Source: Bacteroidota bacterium
GTDB lineage: Bacteria; Bacteroidota; Bacteroidia; Bacteroidales; GCA-2748055
Direction: 5' to 3'
DNA length: 32,870 nucleotides
Assembly: GCA_003648635.1 (NCBI GenBank)
Contig: QMPQ01000011.1
Location: forward strand, 1 to 32,870
Both the position numbers and the translations under genes were made by a program. Shown here in pieces: positions 3,143 to 15,848 of this stretch. How positions within the stretch are numbered: position 1 is the first letter of the stretch; every line of letters starts with the position of its first letter. The notes under the pieces are model-generated. The model saw only the letters and a list, made by a program, of their open reading frames with translations. It made no database searches and was not told where the DNA came from.

Positions 3143-3239
3143 AATTGTAGTTTATCATGCCCTAGATCTGCAATATTAACGAATGTTAGAAAGATATATG
3201 ATTTTTCTCAATGATAATTCTGTCGTCATAAAACATAAA

Positions 3240-3266
3240 GCCCCGTAAATAAGAGATTTACGGGGC
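3240..3266 (-). terminator. Strong hairpin at the end of the hydrogenase operon
   Basis: A perfect 11-base-pair inverted repeat, GCCCCGTAAAT (3240-3250) with ATTTACGGGGC (3256-3266), encloses a 5-base loop. It lies 17 bases beyond the stop of the last hydrogenase-operon gene. Read on the minus strand it is followed by TTTATGTTTTAT, a T-rich but interrupted tail; the other flank carries six A's, so on the minus strand it also has a preceding U run. This fits a Rho-independent terminator for the operon. Confidence 0.75.
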
Positions 3267-3283
3267 CAAAAAAGATCAATTCT

Positions 3284-3694
3284 CTATAAGTATTTACGAT
3301 ATTCGTCTGGTACATCCAGGTAATTGCGATATCGTTTGGCATCTGGCCCAAACGATTCCACCTTTTTTTCCTGGATCTTGTAGGTGCAATATTCACCGAT
3401 AATATTCGAAATATTGATTTCAACCTCCTTTCCATTGTCATCGGTCATGTGTACTTTAACAAGGTTGAAATTCTCCTCCTTGTTCAGCTTGAAGTGGCAC
3501 ACGGGACAATAAAATTTGTATTCCACTCCCTCCTGCAATTCGAAATCAGGGTGGGTGGTTTTGGTATAATTTCCCAGCTCCGTATCAAGGAAAATCAACC
3601 CTCTTTCGTTATCGGGCGATTTGGCTGAAAATACCAGTGAACTGCCAATGTTCATTTTGCTTTTACATTCGGGACATGAATAATTGTTGGGCAT
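3284..3694 (-). CDS. Small zinc-ribbon protein at the end of the hydrogenase operon
   Basis: A 136-residue soluble protein with two CxxC knuckles, CPEC (Cys7, Cys10) and CPVC (Cys63, Cys66), which together can bind one zinc or iron ion as a zinc ribbon. The rest is predicted mixed sheet and charged helix with a basic, tyrosine-rich C-terminus (KRYRNYLDVPDEYRKYL). It has no signal peptide or membrane segment. The gene follows the maturation protease by 11 bases and is the last of the operon, so it probably belongs to hydrogenase assembly or delivery. I do not recognise a named family. It is not HypA: the HypA N-terminal MHE nickel motif is absent. Confidence 0.7.
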   Translation of the reverse strand: MPNNYSCPECKSKMNIGSSLVFSAKSPDNERGLIFLDTELGNYTKTTHPDFELQEGVEYKFYCPVCHFKLNKEENFNLVKVHMTDDNGKEVEINISNIIGEYCTYKIQEKKVESFGPDAKRYRNYLDVPDEYRKYL

Positions 3695-3705
3695 ATCTAA
3701 TTGTT

Positions 3706-4146
3706 TTATTGGTTGATCACTTGAACGATCCGCCTGGTTGCATCCTGCACAGGATGTGAAAGGTATTCCCCGAATTCAACGCTCTCAGGCTGTATCCCTA
3801 GCACATAAGTGGGATAGAGGAAGAAATCAACAAGCCTTCCAAGGGAAATATTGTGCGTATTAAAAGTGATGTCTTCCACATCATCAAGGGCTACCAAACG
3901 ATAGGTTCCGGGACTACGGCCCAGCTCCATGCAGTCTACAATGACAATCTCATGCGGCTCCAGGGAGTTAATTTTACCTATATAGTTTTCAATACTAACT
4001 TCGACAGTAAGCGACTTGATAGCTGGTCTTTCAATAATCTGTTTGCTGATCACCACTCCGACACCGTCATCGCGTTTCAGTACATTACCCACTCCGATAA
4101 ACAGTAATCGGCTGGCTCGTTCTAGCAAGTCCTTCAGTTCAGGCAC
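3706..4146 (-). CDS. hycI: Hydrogenase maturation endopeptidase (HycI/HyaD-like)
   Basis: A 146-residue member of the nickel-dependent hydrogenase maturation protease family, which removes the C-terminal peptide of the large subunit after nickel insertion. The GVGNVLKRDDGVG motif (18-30) carries the first nickel-binding aspartate, VIVDCMELG (68-75) the second (Asp71), and His98 (NTHNISL) is the likely third ligand. The GIQPESVEFG stretch is typical of HycI-type proteases. It lies 6 bases after the MbhN-like gene in the same operon, and the large subunit encoded upstream has a matching C-terminal extension, so the pair probably work together. The gene symbol is by analogy with E. coli. Confidence 0.88.
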   Translation of the reverse strand: MPELKDLLERASRLLFIGVGNVLKRDDGVGVVISKQIIERPAIKSLTVEVSIENYIGKINSLEPHEIVIVDCMELGRSPGTYRLVALDDVEDITFNTHNISLGRLVDFFLYPTYVLGIQPESVEFGEYLSHPVQDATRRIVQVINQ

Positions 4147-4152
4147 CGGCTT

Positions 4153-4761
4153 CTAAATATATTGAATTAGGACAGACCGCATGCAATTGGGGCAGATGAT
4201 ATTGAACATATCTTTTCTTTTCAGGCCATCCCTAATATTTATGTCAGTTTCTTCAGCAGGAGCCAGCTGCAGCTTTTGGTTCAGGAGATTTAGGTTCAAT
4301 GTAGAGGCAAAGGCTTTGGGCCCTAGTTTGTTATGCATGTACTGGATATGTTCATCGGTGGTGATAATGGCAGAGCAATTCTTGCAAAGGACCAGGTTTT
4401 TTTCCTGTTTTTCGATGATTTTGTCCCTGTCAAATACAGCCAGATCAAATATTTTATCGGAGAGAACGACCCCTTTTCCTGTGATACAGTGCTGCTGGCA
4501 CATTCCACAGAAAATACATTTTCCAAAGTCTCTTGTTATTACTCGCTTCCCTGTTTCCCGGTCATCCTGGATTGTGATGGCATTTGAGGGACATACATTG
4601 GCGCAGGTTTCGCACCCGACACAGTTAAGATCATCCACCTCCGGTTTTCCCCTGAAGTTTTCAAAGGGAGTATGGGGCTTGTGTGGGAAGGAGGAAGTAT
4701 ATGCCGGCGTAAGCAGTGATGTTACTGCTTCTTTAAGCTCTCTGATTTTTGGATACTTCAT
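4153..4761 (-). CDS. Hydrogenase 2x[4Fe-4S] subunit, NuoI/HycF/MbhN-like
   Basis: A 202-residue electron-transfer subunit equivalent to MbhN of archaeal membrane hydrogenases and HycF/NuoI. Two [4Fe-4S] motifs are present: CVGCETCANVCP (Cys47, 50, 53, 57) and CIFCGMCQQHC (Cys82, 85, 88, 92). It then has a CKNC pair (Cys126, 129) and a C-terminal CPNC pair (Cys190, 193), the zinc-ribbon-like extension found in several group 4 hydrogenase ferredoxin subunits. It should carry electrons between the electron-input subunits and the small subunit MbhJ. The start overlaps the stop of the MrpG-like gene by 4 bases (ATGA), showing translational coupling. Confidence 0.88.
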   Translation of the reverse strand: MKYPKIRELKEAVTSLLTPAYTSSFPHKPHTPFENFRGKPEVDDLNCVGCETCANVCPSNAITIQDDRETGKRVITRDFGKCIFCGMCQQHCITGKGVVLSDKIFDLAVFDRDKIIEKQEKNLVLCKNCSAIITTDEHIQYMHNKLGPKAFASTLNLNLLNQKLQLAPAEETDINIRDGLKRKDMFNIICPNCMRSVLIQYI

Positions 4762-5075
4762 TTTGCTACATCTTTATAGTCGTCCTTGACACTTTTGTCT
4801 CCAAGCTTAATCCCGAAATGATAGGCTCCCCGTACCAGGGCATGTGCAGCCACGGTGGCCCCGAAGAAAATTAAGGGTATGGCAATGATTGCTTTTATTC
4901 CGGCATCCGTGAAGCCGAAATGAAATAAGGTGCCGGCCAGGATGCTGCAAGTACCGAGTGTTCCACATTTGGTAGCCGATTGGAGCCGGTTATAGACATC
5001 AGGAAATCTGATCAGGCCAATGCAGCCAATCAGGTTGAAGAGTACTCCGATAACAATGAGAATAGTGCTGACCAT
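4758..5075 (-). CDS. mrpG: Mrp/Mbh antiporter subunit G (MbhC-like)
   Basis: A 105-residue three-helix membrane protein of the MnhG/MrpG/PhaG family. The conserved section LIGCIGLIRFPDVYNRLQSATKCGTLG is diagnostic (I see it at about residues 16-42). It corresponds to MbhC in the archaeal hydrogenase and helps form the ion-translocating membrane module. The stop overlaps the start of the MbhN-like gene. It follows the MrpF-like gene by one base. Confidence 0.92.
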   Translation of the reverse strand: MVSTILIVIGVLFNLIGCIGLIRFPDVYNRLQSATKCGTLGTCSILAGTLFHFGFTDAGIKAIIAIPLIFFGATVAAHALVRGAYHFGIKLGDKSVKDDYKDVAK

Positions 5076-5076
5076 T

Positions 5077-5340
5077 TTATTCGTTTAGTTTTTTTCCACT
5101 TAAGTATTTTGCAAGCGTGAGTGTTCCGATAAAACTGAGGATGACCCATGCGATCCCGATATCCAGGATAAATCCTTTTTCGGTGATAATGGATAGGATG
5201 GCGCAAATTCCCACCACAAGAACACCAAAAATATCGATGGCCACCATCCTGTCGGCAATGGACGGGCCCCGAATAATCCTGTACAGGCAGGATGTACTCA
5301 GCGCTATCTGTATATAGAGTAGAATTTCTAGTAGGTCCAT
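5077..5340 (-). CDS. mrpF: Mrp/Mbh antiporter subunit F (MbhB-like)
   Basis: An 87-residue three-helix protein of the MnhF/MrpF family. The signature RIIRGPSIADRMVAIDIFGV is visible at about residues 21-40, followed by two further hydrophobic helices and a short basic tail (LSGKKLNE). It equals MbhB in archaeal hydrogenases. Its ATG shares one base with the stop of the preceding MrpE-like gene (TAATG), a typical coupled junction inside an Mrp operon. Confidence 0.92.
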   Translation of the reverse strand: MDLLEILLYIQIALSTSCLYRIIRGPSIADRMVAIDIFGVLVVGICAILSIITEKGFILDIGIAWVILSFIGTLTLAKYLSGKKLNE

Positions 5341-5825
5341 TATTCAAAAGTCTTTTTGATATATTTTTCAAAGCGGCCGGTTATTTTCCGGCTGTATTGT
5401 TCAGGATCTTCAGAACTCACGTATATCCAGTGCACGAAGAGGTCATCACCCACAATATCCACCGTAATGGTTCCGGGCGTCATTGTAATGGAGTTGGCCA
5501 GCATGGCCCGGGCAAATTCTGATTGCAGTTCTAGTTTTATTTTGACGATTCCGGGTTTAATTGGCATGGCAGGATGAAGTACACGATAGGCCACATCGAA
5601 ATTAGCTTTAATACACTCCCAGATTAAAATGATAATATATATCAGGAACCAGAAGTAGCGTTGTGGCTGCAGAAATTTGTACACCCTTTCATAGAAGTAT
5701 TTTCCGAACAATAAGGAAGTAATAAGTGCTGCAACAGCTCCAACTGCCAGGTTGATCGGTGAAAGGTCGAAAGTAAGCAGCAACCAGAACAGAAAACTTA
5801 GTATGAACAGGGCCAGATATCTCAT
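5340..5825 (-). CDS. mrpE: Mrp/Mbh antiporter subunit E (MbhA-like)
   Basis: A 161-residue protein of the MnhE/MrpE family: two N-terminal transmembrane helices (about 1-30 and 60-75) and a cytoplasmic C-terminal domain. Family marks include FWLLLTFDLSPINLAVG near the start, WECIKANFDVAYRVLHP in the middle and the MTPGTITVDIVGDDLFVHWI strand region (about 118-137). It is the MbhA equivalent. It follows the MrpD-like antiporter gene by one base and overlaps the next gene by one base. Confidence 0.92.
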   Translation of the reverse strand: MRYLALFILSFLFWLLLTFDLSPINLAVGAVAALITSLLFGKYFYERVYKFLQPQRYFWFLIYIIILIWECIKANFDVAYRVLHPAMPIKPGIVKIKLELQSEFARAMLANSITMTPGTITVDIVGDDLFVHWIYVSSEDPEQYSRKITGRFEKYIKKTFE

Positions 5826-5826
5826 A

Positions 5827-7365
5827 TTATAGTCCTAAAGTGCTTGTGAAATAAAGATCTGATTGCATCAATACATCAATGGCGGGACTTAATATGGAAT
5901 CTCGGACTGATGGAAGCGCCAGTAAGCTTAATGCGAGACAGAGTACGGCAAGGAATATCATACTGAATGACATGGCGAAGGGTACCTCCTTTATCTTATC
6001 CAGGGCTTTTCCAGTGCTTTTATTGAAAAAAGCGAAGCGCTGGAATTTCAGAAAATAGGCAAGGGTGATGATGCTAACCACAACGGCCAGTGTGGCCAGC
6101 AAATAAAATCTTCCGTTGATGGCAGCAATCACAATAATCAGCTTGCTGAAAAATCCATTAAATGGGGGGATCCCGGAAATGGACATGGAGGCCATAAATG
6201 AGGTAGTGGATGTAACAGGCATGGCCTTTGAAAGCCCTCCCATCTCTTTAAGGTTGCGGGTATTGAGCCGGTGTTCAATCGCTCCTGCATTCAGGAACAA
6301 TAAGCCTTTGAACACTGCGTGATTGATCATATGGTAGATGGCACCCCCGATGGCCAAAACCGCCGCCGCTTCATTGTTTCCCCTTAATAGTAGAAGAATT
6401 CCCATTCCAAATGCCATGACCACGTATCCCACCTGGCTGATACTTGAATAGGCCAGCAGTCTTTTCAGATCCCACTGTTTGATGGCCAGCAAAGATCCTA
6501 CAACCATGGAGATGGCTCCAAGGGAGGTAAGGACCAGCGCAATTTCATAACTGAAAACAAACATGTTGAAGAAGAGCCTGATCAGCACATAAATTCCCAC
6601 AGCTTTGATTAGTACACCCGAAAGCATGGCTGAAATGGGGGATGGGGCTGAAGAGTGGGCGTCCGGTAACCAGGCATGAAAGGGGATAATGGCTGCTTTC
6701 AGGCCGAATCCGGCAATGAGCAGTACCTGGACAAACAGATAAAAGGGTTTGCTGTAGCCGGCGTCAAGCACATTCCTGACATCTGCAATATTGAGTGTTT
6801 TGGTTTTCCAGTATATCAACCCGATGGCCAGCAGAATCAGCATGGAGGCAAGTCCCCCGAGTACCTGGTATTTAAAGGATGCTTCCAGTTCGGTTTTTCC
6901 CACTCCGAATGCCACCAGGGCATATGAGGAGATCACCGAGACCTCCAGAAATACAAAAAGATTGAAAAGATCGCCACTCAATACCACTCCGTTCATCCCT
7001 GCAATAATCAGGCAGAAGAGTGCGAAGTAGTTGCTCTCAGCCGTATATTTAGTTATGTAGGAAAGTGAGTAGAAAAGTGCAATCAATCCAATGAGGTTGA
7101 TGATGCAGAGCATCAGAACCGAAAAGCCATCCAGAACAAGGTAAATACCCACAGGGACCCCTCCCTCGCTGGTCCATCCTCCCATGGCATAGGTGATGGA
7201 GATCTTTCCCAGACCGGTAAATTCATAAACAGCCAAGATAAGCAGAACTAACAGGGTCAGCGGAGCCAGGAACCTGTGGAACCCTTTTACAAGCTTCCCG
7301 AGAATGACAATCAGGAATGCTGAAATCAATGGTATGGCGACAAACAGGGGAATCAGTGCGTCCAT
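5827..7365 (-). CDS. mrpD: Ion-translocating antiporter subunit, MrpD/MbhH-like
   Basis: A 512-residue, about 14-helix protein of the proton-conducting NuoL/M/N and MrpD family. The residues of the proton/ion channel are in place: the glutamate of the fifth helix (Glu141 in LFVFLEVSVISSY), the helix-7 lysine (Lys223 in GLKAAIIPFHAWLPDAHSSAPSPISAMLSG), Lys254, and the His345/Lys353 pair (IYHMINHAVFKGLLF). This subunit is therefore expected to be a working antiporter, equivalent to MbhH/MrpD. It sits between MrpC- and MrpE-like genes in normal Mrp order. It lacks the amphipathic C-terminal arm of NuoL. Whether it moves H+ or Na+ cannot be told from sequence. Confidence 0.93.
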   Translation of the reverse strand: MDALIPLFVAIPLISAFLIVILGKLVKGFHRFLAPLTLLVLLILAVYEFTGLGKISITYAMGGWTSEGGVPVGIYLVLDGFSVLMLCIINLIGLIALFYSLSYITKYTAESNYFALFCLIIAGMNGVVLSGDLFNLFVFLEVSVISSYALVAFGVGKTELEASFKYQVLGGLASMLILLAIGLIYWKTKTLNIADVRNVLDAGYSKPFYLFVQVLLIAGFGLKAAIIPFHAWLPDAHSSAPSPISAMLSGVLIKAVGIYVLIRLFFNMFVFSYEIALVLTSLGAISMVVGSLLAIKQWDLKRLLAYSSISQVGYVVMAFGMGILLLLRGNNEAAAVLAIGGAIYHMINHAVFKGLLFLNAGAIEHRLNTRNLKEMGGLSKAMPVTSTTSFMASMSISGIPPFNGFFSKLIIVIAAINGRFYLLATLAVVVSIITLAYFLKFQRFAFFNKSTGKALDKIKEVPFAMSFSMIFLAVLCLALSLLALPSVRDSILSPAIDVLMQSDLYFTSTLGL

Positions 7366-7368
7366 CTT

Positions 7369-7707
7369 CTAGCCTCTTAGGTTTTTCATTTCACGTATGT
7401 CGAAGGTCTTATACTTGCGGTAGAGCCTGATGGCTATGGCCATAAGCATAGCGGTGGTAGCCAGACCAATCACAATGGCAGTAAGAACCATGGCCTGGGG
7501 CAGGGGGTCCACATAGACCTGCGCGGACAATCCGGGATCGACGATGGGCATCAAACCATTATCGATATATCCGATCAGCACAAGCATCAGAAATATGCTG
7601 AATTCCATGATCGAAAGGGAGATGGCAATCTTGATCAGGTTTCTCCGTGTGATAAGCCCGTAAAGGCCCACAAGGAAAAGAACGAAGCAAAGGATGTAGA
7701 CAGTCAT
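7369..7707 (-). CDS. mrpC: Mrp/Mbh antiporter subunit C (NuoK-like, MbhG-like)
   Basis: A 112-residue three-helix membrane protein of the NuoK/MrpC family. The helix-2 region IKIAISLSIMEFSIFLMLVLIG holds the conserved glutamate (Glu35), and the third helix region DPLPQAMVLTAIVIGLATTAM is characteristic of MrpC and MbhG. A C-terminal basic tail follows. Its first codon overlaps the stop of the MrpB-like gene by 4 bases (ATGA), and the MrpD gene follows 3 bases later. Confidence 0.92.
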   Translation of the reverse strand: MTVYILCFVLFLVGLYGLITRRNLIKIAISLSIMEFSIFLMLVLIGYIDNGLMPIVDPGLSAQVYVDPLPQAMVLTAIVIGLATTAMLMAIAIRLYRKYKTFDIREMKNLRG

Positions 7708-8141
7708 TTTGAGCTCTCCTCTTTAAAGATTACCAAGGCCAGGAAGATGGTCAGGATGGCCCCGGCCACTTCGATGCCAATGAAAATGTTGTACAGCGGA
7801 ATCACCCCTGCGCTTAACAGCTCTCCCGGCTCCCCTTTGGGAAGATAGTTGAAGAAAAAAACCTTCGTGCCAAACAGTAGCGCCATCAGGGCCAGCACCA
7901 CCACCATCAGGAGGGCAATGCTTTCGGTGTTTGACGATCCGGCCACCTCCTTTTTCAGGTTGAGGGCACTGCTTCCAAAAGCCAGAATAAGCAGGATAAA
8001 GGCCCCCGCAATGATGGCACCGCCAGCAAATCCACCACCCGGAGTAAGGTGTCCATGTAGGATGATGTAGATGCCATAGAGGAATATAAGCCCTGCTAAT
8101 AGCGGAGTTACCCTTTTAACGATAGTAGACATTCCTTCCAT
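7704..8141 (-). CDS. mrpB: Mrp/Mbh antiporter subunit B (MbhF-like)
   Basis: A 145-residue four-helix protein of the MnhB/MrpB family, MbhF in archaeal hydrogenases. The signature YIILHGHLTPGGGFAGGAIIAGAFILLILAFG is evident at about residues 25-56 (shown as a motif span; key residues His29/His31, Pro34, Gly35-37). The C-terminal half, IEVAGAILTIFLALVIFKEES, is the last membrane helix. It follows the fused MbhD/E-like gene by 6 bases. Role: part of the membrane arm, not itself an obvious channel. Confidence 0.92.
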   Translation of the reverse strand: MEGMSTIVKRVTPLLAGLIFLYGIYIILHGHLTPGGGFAGGAIIAGAFILLILAFGSSALNLKKEVAGSSNTESIALLMVVVLALMALLFGTKVFFFNYLPKGEPGELLSAGVIPLYNIFIGIEVAGAILTIFLALVIFKEESSK

Positions 8142-8147
8142 AGCGTT

Positions 8148-8675
8148 TTATTTTTTCCCTTTTATTCTCAGCAGGGTCAGTACTCCCAATGCAGCAGTAT
8201 AAAGTATTACTGCTTCTCCCAGGGTATCATAAGCCCGGAAGTCGAACAACACACCGGTTACAAGGTTTACACTTCCGGTAAGCTCTACAGCTCCATTAAC
8301 ATATGTCTCAGACATTCTCAGGGTATGAGCTCCCAGTGGATCAAGATGTTCAATGGCCAGGATGAAAAAGTAAAATAGTCCAGCAAAAACAATAAATCCG
8401 GCTATCATCTGTAAAATGGCCCTTCTGTCAAGGGTGATTGCAAGCTCCTCTCGTGTACTGTCCAGTACCACAGCGACCATAATGACCAAAGTGATGGTTT
8501 CCACCACAATTTGTACAATGGCCAGATCTGGTGCTTTTAATAAGAGGAAGCAGATCACCAGGCCGTATCCCACAATGCCCATAGCCATAACAGCCGATAG
8601 TAAATCTTTGGCATGGAGTGCATAGATAGCTCCGATGATCATAAATCCCAGTATGATGGAAATCGTCAGTTCCAT
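8148..8675 (-). CDS. Fused MbhD-MbhE-like subunit (MrpA C-terminal domains)
   Basis: A 175-residue membrane protein that combines two parts encoded separately in archaeal Mbh operons and at the end of MrpA in Mrp operons. Residues about 1-80 form the DUF4040/MbhD part (LHAKDLLSAVMAMGIVGYG, LKAPDLAIVQIVVETITLV), a NuoJ-like helix bundle. Residues about 95-175 form the MbhE part, with NLVTGVLFDFRAYDTLGEA near residue 140-158 and a final helix. The gene follows the large antiporter-like gene by 11 bases. Fusion of D and E is common in bacterial versions; the product should sit between the antiporter modules. Confidence 0.88.
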   Translation of the reverse strand: MELTISIILGFMIIGAIYALHAKDLLSAVMAMGIVGYGLVICFLLLKAPDLAIVQIVVETITLVIMVAVVLDSTREELAITLDRRAILQMIAGFIVFAGLFYFFILAIEHLDPLGAHTLRMSETYVNGAVELTGSVNLVTGVLFDFRAYDTLGEAVILYTAALGVLTLLRIKGKK

Positions 8676-8686
8676 ATTTATTCAAG

Positions 8687-10513
8687 TTAGGTTATCAGTA
8701 AAAGCAACAGGATAACCAGGCCGGCAACGACCCAGAGTGTATAGTCGTGCAATATCCCGGTGTGAAGGCGACTGAAAATTCCGCCCAACCAGGAGATGAA
8801 ACGCCCGGAAAGGTCATAGAGATCGAACCAGCGATCCTTTGCTCTCCGAAACAGGGTATCGAGCCATTTAAACTCTTGAAAGCTTTTATAAAATTCAAGG
8901 GTTGAGAAGGAGGTTTCCTCCTGAATTTTTTCTCCCCCAACAAAACTATCAGATGTTCTGAAATTCTTTATGTTGCCGATGAGGTAAATCAATATGCCCA
9001 GGGCAATAGATACCAGGACCAGCAAACTTACTGTGGATGATGCCCATGTTCCTGTATATTCAAATGAACCTGATACCGGCATAAAGAGTTTTGGAACCAC
9101 CTGGTTGGTGGCAAATACTCCAAAACCAATACAAAGCAGCGCGAGGATCAGCATGGGAACCCACATGGCCGGGGATGTTTCCCTGATTTTCGAGGATTGT
9201 TTCTGCTGTCGTCCCAGGAAGATTCCTCCTGTAAATTTGATAAAGCTGGCCAGGGTGAGCGCAGAGCCCAGCACTGCAAGGCCAAGCCAGACCATCCAGA
9301 GTTGATTGGAGATACCGGTACCAAGACCAAAATCAATGATTCCCTGGTAGATCATCCACTTGGAAGCAAATCCGTTAAATGGGGGAATACCTGAGATGGA
9401 GAGAGCAAACACCAGGGTGGCAATGAAGGTGATCGGCATGGCTCTGGATAGTCCACCCAGGTCTTCCAGCTCCTCCTTTCCGCTCTGTTGCTCTACAGCA
9501 CCAGCTGCCAGGAAGAGTCCCCCTTTGTAAAGGGTATTGTTGATCATATGAAACAGTCCGGCAGCAATCCCGATTAAAGATCCCAGACCGAATCCCACAA
9601 TCATGTATCCCACCTGGGAGACTGCATGAAAACCGAGCAGTCGCTTGTAATTATGCTGTACCAGGGCCATCATCACCGCGGTGATAATGGTGATTACTCC
9701 AATGGTCAGCAGGATGAATCTTATCCAATCGCCGATCACAAACAACTGTGTGGTGATCCTGGCAAGGAAGTAGATCCCCAGGAGCTTATCGAGGGAGGCA
9801 GGAAGGTAGGCTGAAGAGGAAGCGGGAGCTGTTTCTGAATAATCGGGAACCCAGGTATGAAACGGGAAAGCCCCCGCCTTGGTAAAGCTCCCAATAAGAA
9901 GGCAAAGGCATGCAATTGATCGCACCAGATCGCTCGTTGGGAGGGCAATTTCGTCCATGTTCAGCGTTCCGGTAACCCTCCAGATAATGGCAATCCCAAG
10001 GATCATGATCCCGTCTGAAGCCCCGATGATGATCAAGGTCTTTTTGGCTGCAGCACTGCTTTTTTCATCCTTGCCGAGGGTTAGTTTGTAGAGCGAAATA
10101 CCCAGGATACCCCAGCAAATAAGGAATAGCAGCAGGTTGTTGGCCAGTACAGCACCGAATGAGAATCCCAGGGTGATCAGGAACCAGGCGTAATAGTTAC
10201 GCATGGCAGCTGCAGTTTTGTATGTGATGGAATAGACAGCAACCAGTAAAGAGATCAGGCTCATAAACAAGATGATGAGTTTGCTTAAACCATCCAGCGA
10301 AAAGGAGCAATATTTTTCAGCACCAGCCCAGTAATCTAAAGTAAATACCAGCTCTTCGGTTCCGAAAAGTGAGATGGCCAGATATCCTGTGAAGAGGATC
10401 ACCCCTATGGAGATGATGGCTTTGATTAGCCTCAGTCCAGATGGCAACAGGAACAACAGGATTCCAATCAATACGGGAAGGATGATGATTTGTATGGCCT
10501 GGTTCATGAGCAT
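8687..10513 (-). CDS. Second antiporter-like subunit with C-terminal arm (NuoL/HyfB/MbhH'-like)
   Basis: A 608-residue membrane protein of the NuoL/M/N family. Conserved features are Lys212 in SFTKAGAFPFHTWVPDYSE, Lys243 in SLDKLLGIYF, His322 and Lys330 in LFHMINNTLYKGGLF, and the GLSRAMP and SISGIPPFNGFASKW loops. The fifth-helix glutamate that most family members have is replaced by glycine (Gly135 in FLICWGILGISLY), so proton transfer may be altered. After about residue 500 comes an extension with amphipathic helix (LSGRFISWLGGIF) and a last transmembrane helix after HTGILHDYTLW, reminiscent of NuoL's lateral arm and of the separate MbhI subunit, which I do not see elsewhere in the operon. 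It lies 3 bases after the large-subunit gene. Confidence 0.85.
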   Translation of the reverse strand: MLMNQAIQIIILPVLIGILLFLLPSGLRLIKAIISIGVILFTGYLAISLFGTEELVFTLDYWAGAEKYCSFSLDGLSKLIILFMSLISLLVAVYSITYKTAAAMRNYYAWFLITLGFSFGAVLANNLLLFLICWGILGISLYKLTLGKDEKSSAAAKKTLIIIGASDGIMILGIAIIWRVTGTLNMDEIALPTSDLVRSIACLCLLIGSFTKAGAFPFHTWVPDYSETAPASSSAYLPASLDKLLGIYFLARITTQLFVIGDWIRFILLTIGVITIITAVMMALVQHNYKRLLGFHAVSQVGYMIVGFGLGSLIGIAAGLFHMINNTLYKGGLFLAAGAVEQQSGKEELEDLGGLSRAMPITFIATLVFALSISGIPPFNGFASKWMIYQGIIDFGLGTGISNQLWMVWLGLAVLGSALTLASFIKFTGGIFLGRQQKQSSKIRETSPAMWVPMLILALLCIGFGVFATNQVVPKLFMPVSGSFEYTGTWASSTVSLLVLVSIALGILIYLIGNIKNFRTSDSFVGGEKIQEETSFSTLEFYKSFQEFKWLDTLFRRAKDRWFDLYDLSGRFISWLGGIFSRLHTGILHDYTLWVVAGLVILLLLLIT

Positions 10514-10516
10514 GGA

Positions 10517-11710
10517 TTATTCATGTTGAAGCAATTTGTTTGTAATGGATGCAGAGTGATTGATGATCTCTTTTGCATTCATGATCCGATTGCCCGACTG
10601 CCGGTCAATTGCAACTGCCAGCCTTTCGGTACAGCAGTAACAAGGATCTACTGCGGCCAGGGATATGGTGGCATCGGAAATGCTTTGTCCCACACAAGAT
10701 TTTTTGAATGTGGCAATGTTGGTGTAACTGGGGGCCCTTATCTTGTGCCTTGCCGGTGAGTTGGAACCATCGGACACCACAAAATGAAAAACCTCCCCGC
10801 GGGGAGCCTCGGCACGCCCTGTCCCATACCCTTCGGGGATATGTTTGACCTTTACATCCACTTCTCCCTCCTTCTCTTTTTTCAAACCTGCCAGGCACTG
10901 TTCAATAATAGAGATCGACTCGTACATCTCCAGCAGCCGAACCTGTGCCTTGGCAAAAACATCTCCGGCTTCAGCAGTGATCACTTTCCAGTTTACCAGC
11001 GGATAGGCTGCGTAGGGGTCGTCGCGCCTCACATCTACATCCACTCCCGATGCCCTGGCGGTGGGTCCTACAGCTGCAAAGTCAAGAATATCCTGTTTTG
11101 TCAGGATGCCAACCCCCTTGGTCCGGGCGTGGATCACAGGATCATCCATGACGGCTCCCACCAGCAAATCAGTTTTTTTCTTTACCAGGTCCAGCATCTC
11201 TTGGATGGCCGGAATTTTTTGATTTTCGATGTCCCTTCGCACCCCTCCCACCTTAAACATGGCATAGTTGTTCCGGTTGCCTGCTATCATCTCAAAGAGA
11301 TCCAGGACCGGTTCGCGGTATTTCCATGCCCACATAAAAACTGTATTGTATCCCAGGAAATGACCTGCAAGCCCTACCCAAAGCAGGTGGCTGTGGATGC
11401 GTTCCAGCTCACCAATAATGGACCGGATGTACTTGGCACGATTGGTGATTTCCACCCCCACGATCTCTTCCACGCTGTTGGCAAATGCAAAAGGATGGGA
11501 GGTGGAGCAGATCCCACAGATCCTCTCCACCAGGAAGAAGACTTCTTCATAACTTTTCTGCTCGGCCAGCTTCTCGATGCCACGGTGGTTATAACCCGTC
11601 TCCCATTTTACATCCTTAACAATTTCGCCGTCGCAGTACAGTTTGAATAGTTCTGGTTCTTCCTGTAAGGGGTGGTAAGGACCAATTGGTATCAATGTCT
11701 GTTTGCTCAT
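10517..11710 (-). CDS. Group 4 [NiFe] hydrogenase large (catalytic) subunit, MbhL-like
   Basis: A 397-residue catalytic subunit. Both nickel-binding motifs are complete: ERICGICSTSH (Cys65, Cys68) and DPCYCC (Cys357, Cys360), so it is a true hydrogenase subunit and not a complex I NuoD, which lacks these cysteines. The N-terminal PIGPYHPLQEEPELFKLYCDGE and YNHRGIEKLAEQKSYEE are group 4 signatures. The sequence continues 37 residues past Cys360; by analogy with HycE the protease would cut after Arg363 in CTER. The frame is open upstream to 11770, but the ATG at 11710 is chosen because it overlaps the preceding stop by 4 bases (ATGA) and starts the conserved region. It should produce or oxidise H2 on the cytoplasmic face. 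Confidence 0.95.
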   Translation of the reverse strand: MSKQTLIPIGPYHPLQEEPELFKLYCDGEIVKDVKWETGYNHRGIEKLAEQKSYEEVFFLVERICGICSTSHPFAFANSVEEIVGVEITNRAKYIRSIIGELERIHSHLLWVGLAGHFLGYNTVFMWAWKYREPVLDLFEMIAGNRNNYAMFKVGGVRRDIENQKIPAIQEMLDLVKKKTDLLVGAVMDDPVIHARTKGVGILTKQDILDFAAVGPTARASGVDVDVRRDDPYAAYPLVNWKVITAEAGDVFAKAQVRLLEMYESISIIEQCLAGLKKEKEGEVDVKVKHIPEGYGTGRAEAPRGEVFHFVVSDGSNSPARHKIRAPSYTNIATFKKSCVGQSISDATISLAAVDPCYCCTERLAVAIDRQSGNRIMNAKEIINHSASITNKLLQHE

Positions 11711-12153
11711 GCTTGTGCCTCCCCTTTTGATTTGAATTTTTTCCGGTAGGGATACTCCCCTGTGGCCCAATTTCCTTCGGATAATAACTGCTCCAGGTTG
11801 GGATGATTCAGAAAGTCAATTCCAAAGAGTTCATGCATCTCTCTTTCGATCCAGTTGGTGGATTCAAACATATTGGAAAGGGATTCAATGGCAGGTTTTT
11901 CGTGATCAAGTATCACATGCAGGTTCAGGATCATTCCGGTGCTGTCGTAACTGAAATGATAATAGATCTCAAATCCTCTCCTGGTATGGAGAGCCGAGGC
12001 GATGATAAACCTGAAACCAAGTTCTTTGAAAAGGTGTTCAGACATGGAAACCAGTGCGGCAGGATCGATGTAGAGGGTGACCCGCTGTTCATTCCTGGTC
12101 TCTGATCCCAGGATCTCTGTTGAAAAAGTCTTTTTAAGTTCTTCAAGGACCAT
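11707..12153 (-). CDS. Hydrogenase 30-kDa-like subunit, NuoC/MbhK-like
   Basis: A 148-residue protein of the NuoC/30-kDa family, equal to MbhK and to the N-terminal part of HycE. The C-terminal signature NWIEREMHELFGIDFLNHP (about residues 100-118) followed by LLSEGNWATGEYPYRKKF is the family pattern. It has no cofactor motif and is expected to be a structural partner of the large subunit. The coupled ATGA overlap with the large-subunit gene and the 6-base gap from the small-subunit gene fit the core order J-K-L. Confidence 0.9.
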   Translation of the reverse strand: MVLEELKKTFSTEILGSETRNEQRVTLYIDPAALVSMSEHLFKELGFRFIIASALHTRRGFEIYYHFSYDSTGMILNLHVILDHEKPAIESLSNMFESTNWIEREMHELFGIDFLNHPNLEQLLSEGNWATGEYPYRKKFKSKGEAQA

Positions 12154-12159
12154 GATCTG

Positions 12160-12573
12160 TTAGTTTTTACCGAGAAGTTTTACAATTCCTGCCAGGATAG
12201 CTTCGGGTTTTGGGGGACATCCCGGGATATATGCATCCACCGGAATGATCTTGTCCACCGGACCAGCAAAGGTGTATCCCTCTGCAAAAATACCTCCCGT
12301 ACACCCACAAGCACCAATGGCCACCACAAGTACTGGCTTGGGAGCCTGTTCATAGATTTCAAGCAGACGCGGCTTATCCTTCTTATTGATGGAGCCATTG
12401 ACCAGCAGTACGTCGGCATGCCGGATACTTCCCACCAGCAGCATTCCAAATCTTTCCAGATCATACCTGGGGGTGAGGCAATCCAGGATCTCAATATCAC
12501 AGTTGTTGCAGGAAGCTCCTCCGAAATGGAACAACCACAATGATTTTTTGAAACAGTAGCTTTTAAATCCCAC
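12160..12573 (-). CDS. [NiFe] hydrogenase small subunit, NuoB/MbhJ-like
   Basis: A 137-residue subunit carrying the proximal [4Fe-4S] cluster next to the Ni-Fe site. The ligands are visible as ASCNNCDIE (Cys22, Cys25), GACGCTGG (Cys89) and PGCPPKPEAI (Cys119). It is short, like MbhJ and HycG, and has no twin-arginine signal or extra clusters, which agrees with a cytoplasmic group 4 enzyme. It follows the NuoH-like gene by 11 bases. Confidence 0.93.
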   Translation of the reverse strand: MGFKSYCFKKSLWLFHFGGASCNNCDIEILDCLTPRYDLERFGMLLVGSIRHADVLLVNGSINKKDKPRLLEIYEQAPKPVLVVAIGACGCTGGIFAEGYTFAGPVDKIIPVDAYIPGCPPKPEAILAGIVKLLGKN

Positions 12574-12584
12574 GTTCTAAATAT

Positions 12585-13517
12585 TTATAAGCCTAAGATT
12601 GCCAGCACAATAGCGATAATTACCAGCAGGTTCATCCAAACAAAGAAGAAGCGCATGGCCTGCTTGATCTTTACTCTTGGATTGGTGTTTCGTATGAGGG
12701 TGAGCAGAAGCACCACAGCAACAAGCTTGAGCACTGCCCAGAGAATATTTATCCCTTCCAGTAAGGTTCCATTCATCAGAATGGCCATTACAAAGGCCGG
12801 AAGGATAAAGAAGAGTATATATTTGGATAGCTTGATCATGGCATAAGGGGTGCCGGAGTACTCGATGAAAATCCCATCGGAGATCTCGGTTTCTGCTTCA
12901 GGCATATCAAAGGGGACAAGTGCCAGTTTTGCCTGCAGGCAAAAAATGACCACTATAAAGAGCAATACGCCGGAAACACTTCCTATGAATGGGACTCCGC
13001 TTTGTTGTACATGGATGATCTGATAGAGGTCTATGCTCTGTCCGGATTTGATGATGATCCCAACCATGACCAGAAGAAAGGTGAGTTCATAGCTCAGAAT
13101 CAGTTTCATCTCACGGGATGCTCCCACGGCAGCCAGTGGATTTCCCGATGAGAGGGCTCCAATCACATAGCTTAAAGATGGTATGGTTAAGAGGTAGAAA
13201 ATAACGATCAGGTCACCATGAAATCCGGAGGTAATATTTAACAGTGGCAGAAGGATAAACACTCCGGCCATGGTTGCACCAAAAACCGCAAATACGGGAG
13301 CTGCCAGGAAGAGCCCCTTGGCCCCCCTGGCAGGCAGGATGGTCTCTTTTACCAGCAGAAGCTTGAAAAAATCATAAAAGGGCTGCAAGAGAGGAGGCCC
13401 TTTGCGAAACTGCACCCCGGCTGTAATCTTCCGGTCAAACCAGGAGAGCAGTCCACCGATCACCGCCATAAACAGGAAACCGGGGTATACAAGAAAATAG
13501 AACAGGTTCGTTCCCAT
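12585..13517 (-). CDS. Membrane anchor subunit, NuoH/HycD/MbhM-like
   Basis: A 310-residue, about 8-helix protein of the NuoH family, which joins the hydrogenase module to the ion-pumping arm. Marks are DRKITAGVQFRKGPPLLQPFYDFFKLL near residue 28-54, the loop PFDMPEAETEISDG (about 198-211) with its acidic residues, and GIFIEYSGTPYAMIKLSKYI. It occupies the first position of the hydrogenase core here, in front of MbhJ, whereas the archaeal operon has it after MbhL. Confidence 0.92.
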   Translation of the reverse strand: MGTNLFYFLVYPGFLFMAVIGGLLSWFDRKITAGVQFRKGPPLLQPFYDFFKLLLVKETILPARGAKGLFLAAPVFAVFGATMAGVFILLPLLNITSGFHGDLIVIFYLLTIPSLSYVIGALSSGNPLAAVGASREMKLILSYELTFLLVMVGIIIKSGQSIDLYQIIHVQQSGVPFIGSVSGVLLFIVVIFCLQAKLALVPFDMPEAETEISDGIFIEYSGTPYAMIKLSKYILFFILPAFVMAILMNGTLLEGINILWAVLKLVAVVLLLTLIRNTNPRVKIKQAMRFFFVWMNLLVIIAIVLAILGL

Positions 13518-13527
13518 AAATTATTTT

Positions 13528-14025
13528 TTACAATTGATCAGTAAGCCATATGCGTTCCCGCACCAGGATATGTTCATTCAGTTTGTAAATATGCTGTTCC
13601 GGATCTTCCTCCATATCGACCCTGGTTACAGCTCCTTCGGGACTTTCCCTGATCCACAGCTCCAGCTCCTTTTCATTCGACAGGTCATAGTAGTTTTCTT
13701 TGTTCCGGTGATATTCGAAAAAATCGGTCATCATGGTACCGAATGGACAGATGACCACACAGGATTTACAGGAGATGCAAAGATTGGTGGACCGGGTAAT
13801 GACCCCCTGGTCATCCTTTTCCAGGGCATCGGCGGGACAGACTTCTATGCAGGGTGCATCTGAACACTTTCTGCAGGTAAATTGGAATACGGCCAGTTCG
13901 CGTATACTTTTCAAGCCATTGCTTCCCACCGAAGGTTCGCATATTCCTTCCGGCGGTGATTCATCACAACTTGTGCCGTTTGGACTTCTCAGTTTTTCCA
14001 GATCGATCAGTATCTTTTGTGCCAT
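13528..14025 (-). CDS. HycB/HydN/CooF-like 2x[4Fe-4S] ferredoxin subunit
   Basis: A 165-residue iron-sulfur protein. Two clusters are evident, CRKCSDAPCIEVCP (Cys51, 54, 59, 63) and CISCKSCVVICP (Cys83, 86, 89, 93). The CxxCx4CxxxCP spacing of the first is typical of HycB, HydN and CooF, which feed electrons to group 4 hydrogenases. Two more cysteines (20 and 29) lie before them. The frame is open to 14082, but the ATG at 14025 is preferred: it lies one base after the stop of the preceding gene and starts at MAQKILIDLEK. It most likely bridges the sulfhydrogenase-like gamma/beta pair and the MbhN/MbhJ subunits. Confidence 0.88.
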   Translation of the reverse strand: MAQKILIDLEKLRSPNGTSCDESPPEGICEPSVGSNGLKSIRELAVFQFTCRKCSDAPCIEVCPADALEKDDQGVITRSTNLCISCKSCVVICPFGTMMTDFFEYHRNKENYYDLSNEKELELWIRESPEGAVTRVDMEEDPEQHIYKLNEHILVRERIWLTDQL

Positions 14026-14026
14026 G

Positions 14027-14851
14027 TCAGTTCCAGATATGAGGTTGATCTTTGATTTCATCATAGGTAAAGACCGGACCATCTTTACATACCAGGTACT
14101 TGCCCATCATGCAATGGCCGCATTTGCCAAGACCGCATGACATATTTTTCTCCATGGAAAGGAAAATATCATGCTCAGGATAGCCCATCTCCAGTAGCTT
14201 CATGGTTCCGAATTTCATCATAATGGGAGGGCCGCAGACCACTGCAACGGAATTCTTAATATCCATCTTAACATCATCCAGCAGGACAGTGACCACACCC
14301 ACCCGCTCGTTCCAGTTCCCATTTGCCTGGTCCACACTTCGAAGCACTTCAAACTTTGGCGTGTCACGCAGTTCCTGGATATAGGGTTTATAGATACAAT
14401 CTTCAGGAGTTTTTGATCCGTAGCACAGGGTCACTTTCCGAAGTTTGTCGGAGATGGCAATCAGATTGAAGAGCAGAGACCGTATGGGAGCAAAGCCACA
14501 ACCACCCCCCAGGATCAGCACCTCTTTGTCGTAGAATTTTTCAAGGGGATAACCTCTCCCAAAGGGCCCCCTGATCCCCATAAGCTCTCCTGGTTTCATG
14601 CGATGCATGTGATCGGTTACATAACCGGTTTTCATAACAGTTACCTCAAGCTTATCTTTTTGAAGCGGTGAGGAGGAAGGGGTAAAAGGAGCTTCTCCCA
14701 TGCCATCAACGGTGACCTCAATAAACTGGCCAGTGGCAAATGAAAACTCCTGTTCGGGCACCAGGACAAATGTTTTGATCAGGGGTGATTCATCAATCAC
14801 CTTGACCAGCTCACACTTCAGGGGCTTATACAGACTTCCATTCTTTCCCAT
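14027..14851 (-). CDS. FAD/NAD(P)-binding [2Fe-2S] subunit, sulfhydrogenase gamma / AsrB-like
   Basis: A 274-residue flavoprotein of the ferredoxin reductase family. An FAD-binding barrel comes first (GQFIEVTVDG, TPSSSP at about 57-62, GIRGPFGRGYPL), then a nucleotide-binding domain with GGGCGFAPIRS (115-125) and CGPPIMMK (206-213), and then a PyrK-type [2Fe-2S] site at Cys239, Cys244, Cys247 and Cys255 (MSCGLGKCGHC..). This matches the gamma subunit of soluble archaeal hydrogenases and AsrB of anaerobic sulfite reductase, where it exchanges electrons with NAD(P)H. In this operon it is the expected NAD(P)H end. NADH versus NADPH preference cannot be read reliably. It follows the beta-like gene by 4 bases. 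Confidence 0.9.
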   Translation of the reverse strand: MGKNGSLYKPLKCELVKVIDESPLIKTFVLVPEQEFSFATGQFIEVTVDGMGEAPFTPSSSPLQKDKLEVTVMKTGYVTDHMHRMKPGELMGIRGPFGRGYPLEKFYDKEVLILGGGCGFAPIRSLLFNLIAISDKLRKVTLCYGSKTPEDCIYKPYIQELRDTPKFEVLRSVDQANGNWNERVGVVTVLLDDVKMDIKNSVAVVCGPPIMMKFGTMKLLEMGYPEHDIFLSMEKNMSCGLGKCGHCMMGKYLVCKDGPVFTYDEIKDQPHIWN

Positions 14852-14855
14852 GGCA

Positions 14856-15848
14856 TTAATTTGCTAACTCCATGAATAGTTCGTTCTTATTGATCTGGCC
14901 AATACAGGCCTCTATACAACGACCGCATCCAGTACAGGCTTTTAACTCATATTTCAGGGGCTTCCACACATATTTACACATATAGCGGTTTCTGAATCTG
15001 TCCTTGAGATGGCCAAGTGAATCTTCACCACCAGCCACACGTTCAAAACCAGGGTATTGACAGGTATCCAGCTGTCGTATTTTCTCAAATCCAGGCCTGT
15101 CGATTAATAGGAAACAGGAGCAAGTAGGACAGATAGCACTACAGGCTCCACAGGAAACACAGTCTGAGGCATATTTAATCCATGGCTCATCCCCGGAAGC
15201 TTCTACCAGCTCACCTGTCTTCTCATATCCTGGCAATGCATTATTCTGCTTGCCAAGTAATTCTTTCACCTCCTTTTGTTGAGTCTGTAGTTTCTCCAGA
15301 AGATTTTCTTCAGGGGTACTGGCTACGACTATTCCCAGCTTCTGTACAAAAGATTCACCCTTTTCGGTAAAAATGCTAAGGATCACCTGTTCCTCTACCA
15401 GGGCGGCAGAGATATCAGCAAATTTATTCCCGACGGGCTCAATGCCATAGCTGGTGCAGTGGCAGTGTTCCTGAATGCTAAGGCAGTCGAAGGAAATGAT
15501 GGTGGTCCGGTCCCGGCGGTCACCATAGGATGGATCATCGTATTCCTGGTCCAGGTATATCTGGTCCAGGAAGGCCAGTGCCATCACATCACAATTGGGA
15601 GCACCGATGAGAACCACTGGAGATCCATTGGTGCTGTCTGTCACATTCTCTTTGACAGGAAGGAAGAAGTTTTTTAGGGGAGTGACCGGCTTAGGTTTGT
15701 TATAGCTGATTTCAGGTATTGTATCTGTATCCAGTTTGACATAGTCACACGAGAAATCATTCTCCACCGGTGCATAAAGGTCAAGAGATGATAGGAGTTG
15801 ACTAAGCCTCTCATCCCATTCATGCTTGGGGATAGCTATCCTATTCAT
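14856..15848 (-). CDS. Iron-sulfur subunit, sulfhydrogenase beta / AsrA-like
   Basis: A 330-residue electron-transfer protein, first gene of the operon. Two C-terminal [4Fe-4S] sites are CVSCGACSAICP (Cys230, 233, 236, 240) and CTGCGRCIEAC (Cys305, 308, 311, 315), and further cysteines follow the first (PTCSCF). The N-terminal domain holds GAPNCDVMALAFLD and the cysteine-rich DCLSIQEHCHC (Cys122, 129, 131), as in the beta subunit of archaeal sulfhydrogenase and AsrA. It pairs with the gamma-like subunit encoded next. The start ATG is at 15846-15848, downstream of the candidate promoter and Rex site. No sulfite reductase catalytic subunit (AsrC) is near, so the hydrogenase context decides its role. 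Confidence 0.9.
   Translation of the reverse strand: MNRIAIPKHEWDERLSQLLSSLDLYAPVENDFSCDYVKLDTDTIPEISYNKPKPVTPLKNFFLPVKENVTDSTNGSPVVLIGAPNCDVMALAFLDQIYLDQEYDDPSYGDRRDRTTIISFDCLSIQEHCHCTSYGIEPVGNKFADISAALVEEQVILSIFTEKGESFVQKLGIVVASTPEENLLEKLQTQQKEVKELLGKQNNALPGYEKTGELVEASGDEPWIKYASDCVSCGACSAICPTCSCFLLIDRPGFEKIRQLDTCQYPGFERVAGGEDSLGHLKDRFRNRYMCKYVWKPLKYELKACTGCGRCIEACIGQINKNELFMELAN

What the first reader, a model, noticed from the sequence alone, without database searches (positions are those of the whole stretch)
3284..15848. Membrane-bound Mbh-type hydrogenase fused in one operon to a sulfhydrogenase beta/gamma (NAD(P)H) module
Seen: one unbroken operon encodes AsrA/AsrB-like proteins with FAD/NAD and Fe-S sites, a HycB-like ferredoxin, the complete Mbh hydrogenase core with intact Ni ligands, and an Mrp-like ion-pumping set. 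Known: archaeal Mbh uses ferredoxin, while beta/gamma subunits belong to soluble NAD(P)H-linked hydrogenases. Inference: this would be an ion-gradient-coupled hydrogenase exchanging electrons with NAD(P)H (perhaps with ferredoxin as a second partner), which could let a fermenter make H2 from NADH using, or conserving, membrane energy. I cannot say whether this combination has been described in Bacteroidota.
Basis: partly seen in the sequence, partly recalled or inferred. Interest (0 to 1): 0.78.

Follow-up and report, generated by a model that had tools for sequence, protein, structure and literature searches.

The report
Membrane hydrogenase with NAD(P)H-oxidising arm
A bacterium of the Bacteroidota carries one long operon for a membrane-bound, probably ion-pumping hydrogen enzyme that appears to take its electrons from NAD(P)H; the same operon is found in many relatives, a similar gene set has been noted in other phyla, and we found no report of a biochemical test.

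Summary
Eighteen minus-strand genes (3284-15848, gaps of -4 to 11 nt) encode sulfhydrogenase beta/gamma-like AsrA-AsrB, a two-cluster HycB/CooF-like protein, a group 4 [NiFe] core with all four Ni ligands, two antiporter-type subunits with a full Mrp set, a HycF-like ferredoxin, the HycI protease and a small Cys-rich protein. AsrAB is a fixed part: 61 of 62 testable Bacteroidota loci have AsrA, AsrB, HycB and core genes upstream of the large subunit (the exception breaks at scaffold N runs), and another Bacteroidota class keeps the order. A divergent Rex gene stands beside 51 of 58; a Rex-type operator is exact in 41 of 55 intergenic regions, degenerate in the window. In this genome AsrAB has no other visible partner (no AsrC, no second [NiFe] large subunit) and the hydrogenase no molybdopterin dehydrogenase. 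New detail: the NuoL-like subunit lacks the TM5 glutamate family-wide (73 of 74 Gly). Best reading: an NAD(P)H-fed, ion-coupled hydrogenase, formate hydrogenlyase-like with formate dehydrogenase replaced by AsrAB. Donor, direction and ion are inferred. Mbh + Mrp + cooF + asrAB was already noted in Saganbacteria (PMC6349859): a new variant of a known kind.

The parts
14856..15848 (-). AsrA/sulfhydrogenase beta-like subunit, several [4Fe-4S] sites
   Evidence: 16 cysteines invariant in 64 of 64 rows (window plus 63 of 67 loci with a hit; 4 partial hits dropped)
14027..14851 (-). AsrB/sulfhydrogenase gamma-like subunit: FAD, NAD(P) and [2Fe-2S] sites
   Evidence: C239, C244, C247, C255 in 68 of 68 rows (window plus 67 of 69 loci; 2 partial hits dropped)
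13528..14025 (-). HycB/CooF-like adapter ferredoxin with two cluster motifs
   Evidence: 8 cysteines invariant in 59 of 59 rows (13 of 71 loci dropped); both motifs in 69 of 71 loci on recount, L059 cut and L112 with N run
12585..13517 (-). MbhM/NuoH-like membrane anchor
   Evidence: PF00146; P. furiosus 6CFW_M the only PDB sequence at E<=1e-30
12160..12573 (-). MbhJ/NuoB-like small subunit (proximal cluster)
   Evidence: PF01058; C22, C25, C32, C89, C91, C119 invariant in 76 of 76 rows
11707..12153 (-). MbhK/NuoC-like subunit
   Evidence: PF00329
10517..11710 (-). MbhL: [NiFe] large subunit with both CxxC pairs and a C-terminal extension
8687..10513 (-). NuoL/MrpA-N-like antiporter subunit, TM5 glutamate replaced by glycine
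   Evidence: PF00361; column counts; four PDB relatives with Glu
8148..8675 (-). MrpA C-terminal part (MbhD+MbhE domains)
   Evidence: PF13244, PF20501
7704..8141 (-). MrpB
   Evidence: PF04039
7369..7707 (-). MrpC
   Evidence: PF00420; NCBIfam antiporter subunit C
5827..7365 (-). MrpD, Glu/Lys ion-path residues kept
   Evidence: PF00361
5340..5825 (-). MrpE
   Evidence: PF01899
5077..5340 (-). MrpF
   Evidence: PF04066
4758..5075 (-). MrpG
   Evidence: PF03334
4153..4761 (-). HycF/NuoI-like 2x[4Fe-4S] protein with an extra C-terminal CxxC pair
   Evidence: eight cluster cysteines in 57 of 57 rows
3706..4146 (-). HycI-type hydrogenase maturation protease
   Evidence: PF01750, TIGR00142 below its cut-off, TIGR00072 above its cut-off
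3284..3694 (-). small Cys-rich (CxxC...CxxC) conserved protein of unknown role, last gene of the operon
   Evidence: no Pfam match; found in 43 of 54 loci with at least 8.8 kb downstream; model pLDDT 79, no PDB fold match at E<=0.001
3239..3267 (-). terminator-like hairpin just after the last gene
   Evidence: 12-pair stem; the scan as a whole is at shuffle level (15 against 13.2 +- 3.1)
15872..15900 (-). promoter-like pair upstream of AsrA
   Evidence: TTGACT-17-TATTTT (scan at shuffle level, 20 against 24.1 +- 4.9)
15923..15938 (.). degenerate Rex-type operator (2 mismatches to TGTGA-N6-TCACA)
   Evidence: 90 nt from AsrA, as in L037 (90, one mismatch) and L068, L091, L104 (88, exact)
16038..16685 (+). 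divergent Rex redox repressor
   Evidence: NF003996, 209 bits over cut-off 138; divergent in 51 of 58 loci

Best explanation
The operon encodes one membrane complex: a Mrp-linked group 4 [NiFe] hydrogenase whose cytoplasmic arm is fed by an NAD(P)H dehydrogenase module. AsrB takes hydride from NAD(P)H onto FAD, passes electrons through its [2Fe-2S] to the Fe-S clusters of AsrA, then through the HycB-like adapter and the HycF/NuoI-like protein to MbhJ and the NiFe site of MbhL, where H2 is made (or, reversed, oxidised). This is the layout of formate hydrogenlyase with the formate dehydrogenase replaced by AsrAB. The reaction is coupled to ion movement through MbhM and the Mrp arm, with MrpD a canonical unit and the NuoL-like unit altered. 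NAD(P)H to H2 is near equilibrium or uphill, so it most likely runs as a two-way valve that spends or saves a small ion gradient depending on NADH/NAD+ and H2 pressure, with Rex letting the operon on when NADH is high. Shown: genes, order, conserved cofactor ligands, Rex gene and operator conservation in relatives. Inferred: assembly, donor, electron path, direction, ion and stoichiometry.
For: Unbroken operon with gaps of -4 to 11 nt. AsrA, AsrB, HycB, MbhM, J, K upstream in 61 of 62 loci; NuoL, all Mrp genes and NuoI-like downstream in 53 of 54; the one failure in both is L112, whose two breaks coincide with runs of 100 N. Same order in another class of the phylum, AsrB 52% and MbhL 58% identical over the best segments (L158). 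Cofactor cysteines of AsrA, AsrB, HycB, NuoI-like and MbhL invariant in the rows counted. In this genome: no AsrC over cut-off, one [NiFe] large subunit, and no PF00384 molybdopterin oxidoreductase at all (0 of 1; the control rings in 11 of 14), so AsrAB is the visible input module and has no other visible partner. HycF-like subunit matches FHL HycF best; HycB is the proposed adapter in the Moorella Fdh-Ech complex (PMC13040438 passages). Divergent Rex in 51 of 58, operator exact in 41 of 55 regions against 1 of 5,500 mononucleotide shuffles, which points to NADH. Genome G530 has both an AsrAB-type operon (L176) and a second group 4 hydrogenase without AsrAB or HycB in the 19.5 kb read (L173), so the arm belongs to this type.
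Against: No biochemistry, expression or structure of the complex. AsrA and AsrB score far below the cut-offs of every NCBIfam equivalog they match, so NAD(P)H use rests on homology. NADH against NADPH cannot be told: the nearest characterised family (group 3b) is NADP-coupled in HydDB, Rex points to NADH. The window's own Rex site has two mismatches, reached or beaten by 139 of 2,000 shuffles of that region; the spacing pattern was chosen after looking at the palindromes in the set, and the 55 regions are related. Gene-distance correlations (0.73-0.87, 40 loci) are not consistently higher for AsrAB-hydrogenase pairs than for Rex-hydrogenase pairs, so they show shared descent, not contact. Mrp-linked group 4g enzymes in Cloacimonadota and Omnitrophota are read as ferredoxin-coupled (PMC8542988 passages); ferredoxin could still enter at the HycF-like subunit.
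Confidence: 0.7

Rival explanations
1. Electron confurcation: NAD(P)H enters through AsrB and reduced ferredoxin through the HycF/NuoI-like subunit, and both are needed to make H2, with or without ion pumping.
For: Two possible entry points exist in the gene set; the genome also has an Rnf-like cluster and three contigs with [FeFe] hydrogenase beside a 51K-type subunit, enzymes that link both pools.
Against: No 51K (NuoF/HydB-like) domain among the operon proteins and no other flavin domain than AsrB's in the Pfam scans. HycF-like subunits in FHL are not known to take ferredoxin (recalled).
Confidence: 0.13
2. Ferredoxin-only Mbh; AsrAB is an independent soluble diaphorase or ferredoxin:NAD(P)+ reductase that is merely co-transcribed.
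For: 4d is ferredoxin-coupled and 4g putatively so in HydDB (PMC5037454); AsrAB relatives are soluble enzymes.
Against: AsrA, AsrB and HycB directly before the core in 61 of 62 loci and in a second class; the HycB-like adapter is not found at the AsrAB-free second hydrogenase of G530.
Confidence: 0.11
3. AsrAB serves sulfur or sulfite reduction (sulfhydrogenase or anaerobic sulfite reductase).
For: Names and homology of AsrA/AsrB.
Against: No AsrC over cut-off in a 97% complete genome; the weak hits cover only the ferredoxin part of the model. No second [NiFe] large subunit.
Confidence: 0.03
4. AsrAB is only a wire for a separate dehydrogenase, as the molybdopterin oxidoreductase beside asrAB in Saganbacteria RX5A might suggest.
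For: PMC6349859 reports such a gene in the region (passage).
Against: No PF00384 match anywhere in the window's genome. The other loci were not searched for one. (Odds lowered from 0.03 to 0.02.)
Confidence: 0.02

Closest known systems
Group 4 [NiFe] hydrogenase with Mrp, cooF, asrA and asrB in Saganbacteria RX5A (PMC6349859; passages read)
   Different: That region also has an unclassified molybdopterin oxidoreductase (none in the window's genome); its function was likened to Mbh; Rex and an NAD(P)H role do not appear in the passages read. Sequences not compared here.
Pyrococcus furiosus MBH (6CFW, group 4d)
   Same: MbhL 290 bits; MbhM and MbhH homologues; Mrp-type arm.
   Different: Ferredoxin-fed, no AsrAB or HycB, one MrpD-type subunit (recalled); the window has two antiporter-type subunits.
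Formate hydrogenlyase of E. coli (7Z0S, group 4a)
   Same: HycE 272 bits, HycF the best PDB match of the NuoI-like subunit, HycB-type adapter, HycI protease.
   Different: Formate dehydrogenase as input module and no Mrp set (recalled).
T. onnurineus Fdh2-Mrp-Mbh (group 4b; mentioned in PMC13040438 passages, and HydDB passages)
   Same: Mrp-linked hydrogenase with an added input module.
   Different: Input is formate dehydrogenase. Sequences not compared here.
P. furiosus sulfhydrogenase I (9NEZ, group 3b)
   Same: AsrA and AsrB are homologues of its beta and gamma subunits.
   Different: Soluble, with alpha/delta hydrogenase subunits of group 3b and no membrane arm (recalled).

Membership tests
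Group 4 respiratory [NiFe] hydrogenase | Both CxxC Ni-ligand pairs in a NuoD-like large subunit | tested here: met
   of the 30 phylum-wide loci returned, only the window and G327 show both motifs
Group 4 respiratory [NiFe] hydrogenase | NuoH/NuoB/NuoC-like partners and antiporter-like subunits | tested here: met
HydDB subgroup 4b, 4d or 4g | Placement of the large subunit in the HydDB tree or classifier | not testable with these tools
   HydDB sequences not on hand; definitions read in passages
Mbh of P. furiosus type (4d) | Ferredoxin as the donor | not testable with these tools
   needs biochemistry
Mbh of P. furiosus type (4d) | No added dehydrogenase module (recalled) | tested here: not met
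   AsrAB and HycB in the operon
Group 3b sulfhydrogenase | Beta/gamma subunits of the AsrA/AsrB superfamily | tested here: met
   (below equivalog cut-offs)
Group 3b sulfhydrogenase | Group 3b alpha subunit | tested here: not met
   large subunit is NuoD/Mbh-like; no other [NiFe] large subunit found in the genome
Anaerobic sulfite reductase AsrABC | AsrC siroheme subunit | tested here: not met
   no match over cut-off in the genome
Formate hydrogenlyase | Molybdopterin formate dehydrogenase, in the operon or elsewhere | tested here: not met
   none in the operon; no PF00384 match in the genome, control 11 of 14
NAD(P)H-linked hydrogenase | NAD(P)H-dependent H2 turnover | not testable with these tools
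   needs biochemistry

The most novel reading that the evidence does not exclude
A widespread NADH:H+ oxidoreductase ('NADH hydrogenlyase') that uses reverse ion flow to push H2 production from NADH, working with a crippled first antiporter unit (no TM5 glutamate) so that the ion cost fits the small NADH/H2 gap, and governed by Rex; it would give fermenting Bacteroidales a non-bifurcating way to vent NADH as H2 and would assign a donor to Mrp-linked hydrogenases whose function is unresolved.
Probability: 0.35. Interest if true: 0.78.

Novelty: new variant of a known kind. Interest (0 to 1): 0.52.

Why it matters
Fermenters are thought to make H2 from NADH by confurcation with ferredoxin or at very low H2 pressure (recalled). 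A membrane hydrogenase with an NAD(P)H arm would couple the NAD(P)H pool, H2 and the ion gradient in one reversible machine. HydDB lists the role of subgroup 4g as undetermined and PMC6776011 still calls it functionally unresolved (passage); if this type falls there, which could not be tested here, the fixed AsrAB arm gives a directly testable donor. The family-wide loss of one antiporter glutamate in an otherwise conserved arm is a natural experiment on pumping stoichiometry in complex I relatives. Two carriers are records of named strains not marked as MAG (Labilibacter sediminis CG51, Marinilabiliaceae bacterium JC017).

Tried and rejected
Sulfite reductase or group 3b reading: rejected for want of AsrC and of a second [NiFe] large subunit. 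Formate hydrogenlyase proper: no molybdopterin oxidoreductase in the genome. AsrAB as a separately transcribed unit: no long gap or strand change; promoter and terminator scans are at shuffle level and decide nothing by themselves. Exact Rex consensus in the window: 0 matches with variable gap; four consensus forms gave mean excesses of -0.05 to 2.09 over shuffles before the N6 form was counted; the window has only a 2-mismatch site. Exception L112 (AsrAB and distal Mrp genes not found): its two breaks lie at runs of 100 N, 7927-8026 and 13515-13614, and the only AsrAB found in that genome (37%/25%) lies in another kind of cluster; read as a scaffolding fault, not proven. The first count of complete upstream sets gave 57 of 62 because the 4-nt MbhK/MbhL overlap failed my test; corrected to 61 of 62. 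'Found' there means a tblastn hit at E<=1e-4: in L043, L047, L109 and L110 the AsrA hit covers under 80%. Rows dropped before cysteine counts: AsrA 4 of 67, AsrB 2 of 69, HycB 13 of 71 (11 because my query began 19 codons early, as I read it; recount 69 of 71), NuoI-like 2 of 58, MbhJ 2 of 77, MbhL 1 of 80, NuoL 6 of 79, MrpD 3 of 66. Gene-distance correlations gave no clear extra support for contact. Fold of the last gene: no PDB match. Viral contigs: no relatives. A first Ni-motif control returned empty proteins and was void; redone. No reference sequences of HydDB subgroups or of Saganbacteria were on hand, so no subgroup tree was made. Loci examined: the best 80 of 265 confirmed relatives; the other 185 were not returned, so taxa outside Bacteroidota may be among them. 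Some of the 80 appear to be the same contigs as genomes under G handles (equal contig lengths, e.g. L037 and G007:C112), so the two sets are not independent.

Full report
What is there. Eighteen genes on the minus strand between 15848 and 3284 follow each other with gaps of -4 to 11 nt: AsrA-like, AsrB-like, HycB/CooF-like, MbhM, MbhJ, MbhK, MbhL, a NuoL/MrpA-N-like subunit, MrpA C-part (MbhD+MbhE domains), MrpB, C, D, E, F, G, a HycF/NuoI-like ferredoxin, HycI and a 136-residue Cys-rich protein. A 12-pair terminator-like hairpin lies at 3267-3239 and a promoter-like pair at 15900-15872 (the scan finds no more of either than shuffles do). A Rex gene runs the other way from 16038.

The catalytic core is a real [NiFe] site. 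MbhL has RICGICSTSH and DPCYCCTER, a C-terminal extension and a HycI-type protease in the operon. The four ligand cysteines are in 80 of 80 aligned rows, window included; the one locus dropped, L083, has an in-frame stop but both motifs. Best solved relatives are P. furiosus MbhL (290 bits) and E. coli HycE (272 bits). HypD is elsewhere in the genome, with HypF-like and HypE-like ORFs beside it; hyp-like genes also flank the operon in L100 (Labilibacter), L116 (JC017) and L158 (all read by eye from the translations).

The input arm. AsrA and AsrB align over most of their length with sulfhydrogenase I beta and gamma (9NEZ). Sixteen AsrA cysteines are invariant in 64 of 64 rows, the four C-terminal AsrB cysteines in 68 of 68, and both cluster motifs of the HycB-like protein are in 69 of 71 loci, the other two being cut or N-filled there. 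AsrA and AsrB stay far below the cut-offs of the NCBIfam equivalogs they match, so they are a separate branch. The HycF/NuoI-like subunit matches FHL HycF at 90 bits against 39 for MbhN. The peripheral arm is thus more like formate hydrogenlyase, with AsrAB in the place of formate dehydrogenase, and the membrane arm more like Mbh/Mrp.

How general it is. In genome contigs 265 relatives were confirmed and the best 80 returned; all 80 titles name Bacteroidota or a group within it. Of 62 loci with at least 5 kb upstream of MbhL, 61 have hits to AsrA, AsrB, HycB, MbhM, J and K there; of 54 with at least 8.8 kb downstream, 53 have NuoL, all Mrp genes and the NuoI-like gene, 52 HycI and 43 the last gene. 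The exception, L112, breaks at two runs of 100 N. In whole genomes, 21 of 393 sampled from the order (window genome included) have the large subunit at E<=1e-100; in the phylum sample of 395, only the window genome and G327, of another class, reach that level, and 28 of the 30 loci returned there lack the Ni motifs. G327 has the same order with MbhL 58%, AsrB 52% and AsrA 35% identical over the best segments, but no Rex hit and no match to the last gene (L158). In the genus, 7 of 17 other genomes have a match of 70% identity or more, one of them partial.

Regulation. A divergent Rex gene lies within 600 nt of AsrA in 51 of 58 loci with at least 6 kb upstream and AsrA found. TGTGA-N6-TCACA, the core of the Rex consensus quoted in PMC5317091 (passage), occurs exactly in 41 of 55 rex-asrA regions, window included, and in 1 of 5,500 mononucleotide shuffles. 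The form was chosen after looking at the palindromes and the regions are related, so this is not 41 independent cases. The window's best site has two mismatches, which 139 of 2,000 shuffles of that region reach or beat; it stands 90 nt from AsrA, near the positions in L037, L068, L091 and L104. Rex senses NADH/NAD+ and represses at low ratio (PMC5317091 passage), which favours NADH as the controlled pool.

A family-wide change in the ion arm. In the NuoL-like subunit the TM5 glutamate position is Gly in 73 and Ser in 1 of 74 rows, and Gly in L158; the four closest solved antiporter subunits have Glu there, as does the other group 4 hydrogenase of G530. The TM7, TM8 and TM12 lysines are kept in 74 of 74, and MrpD keeps Glu and all three Lys in 64 of 64. 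The role of that glutamate in pumping is recalled knowledge. That the change lowers the ion stoichiometry is inference.

Energetics (inference). With the potentials in the abstract of PMC9304861 (NADH about -280 mV, H2 -414 mV; seen in the listing), H2 at 10 Pa stands at about -296 mV by my arithmetic, so NADH to H2 is near balance there and uphill at higher H2. A coupling that spends part of one ion per H2 would shift it; with NADPH in a more reduced pool the reaction could instead save some energy. The machine is therefore best seen as a reversible valve.

Other partners in this genome. PF00374 finds one [NiFe] large subunit, this one. AsrC has no match over cut-off; the hits cover only the ferredoxin part of the model. 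PF00384 finds no molybdopterin oxidoreductase, while the control finds one in 11 of 14 genomes. The genome is 97% complete in 416 contigs, so absences are probable, not certain. [FeFe] hydrogenase matches stand on three contigs that also have 51K-type subunits (C90, C97, C201), and an Rnf-like cluster is on C73, so both ferredoxin and NADH are in play.

What is known. PMC6349859 (passages read) reports in Saganbacteria RX5A a group 4 hydrogenase with Mrp subunits, cooF, asrA, asrB and an unclassified molybdopterin oxidoreductase, nearest to Zixibacteria and Omnitrophica, and likens it to Mbh. So the combination is known from sequence. PMC8542988 (passages) reads Mrp-linked group 4g enzymes of Cloacimonadota and Omnitrophota as ferredoxin-coupled. 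Searches of the paper library showed no paper whose listing or read passages describe the AsrAB type in Bacteroidota or test NAD(P)H as donor; most subscription papers are not held, and I read only passages. HydDB (passages) lists 4d as ferredoxin-coupled and 4g as undetermined; I could not classify the large subunit.

Verdict. A real, conserved, probably single complex; best read as an NAD(P)H-fed ion-coupled hydrogenase; new variant of a known kind; mechanism inferred.

Noticed in passing
L044, L046, L048, L058, L065, L078 between AsrB and HycB: A cNMP-binding-like gene sits inside the operon in relatives (PF00027 for the L065 copy; the other five read by eye); 23 of 69 loci have a gap over 300 nt there. 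The window lacks it.
   Followed up: partly
L173 (G530:C10:182000-201500): A second group 4 [NiFe] hydrogenase in a genome that also has the AsrAB-type operon (L176): complex I-like membrane arm, no AsrAB or HycB hit in 19.5 kb, Ni ligands intact, TM5 Glu kept.
   Followed up: partly
L174 (G804:C1:1294000-1313000): Another AsrAB pair (37%/25% identical) beside ORFs that read like flavoprotein, Hdr and 2-oxoacid oxidoreductase genes (by eye).
   Followed up: no
L161 (G000:C201): A second Rex-like gene (31% identical) directly after an [FeFe] hydrogenase gene set in the window's genome.
   Followed up: no
window 4153-4761: The HycF-like subunit has an extra C-terminal CxxC...CxxC pair, kept in 56-57 of 57 rows, looking like a zinc or rubredoxin-type site.
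   Followed up: partly
window 3284-3694: Last gene: conserved Cys-rich beta protein without Pfam or PDB match; possible assembly factor.
   Followed up: partly
window 22403-28194: ORFs that read like an RND efflux system (outer membrane factor, pump, adaptor) on the minus strand; by eye only.
   Followed up: no
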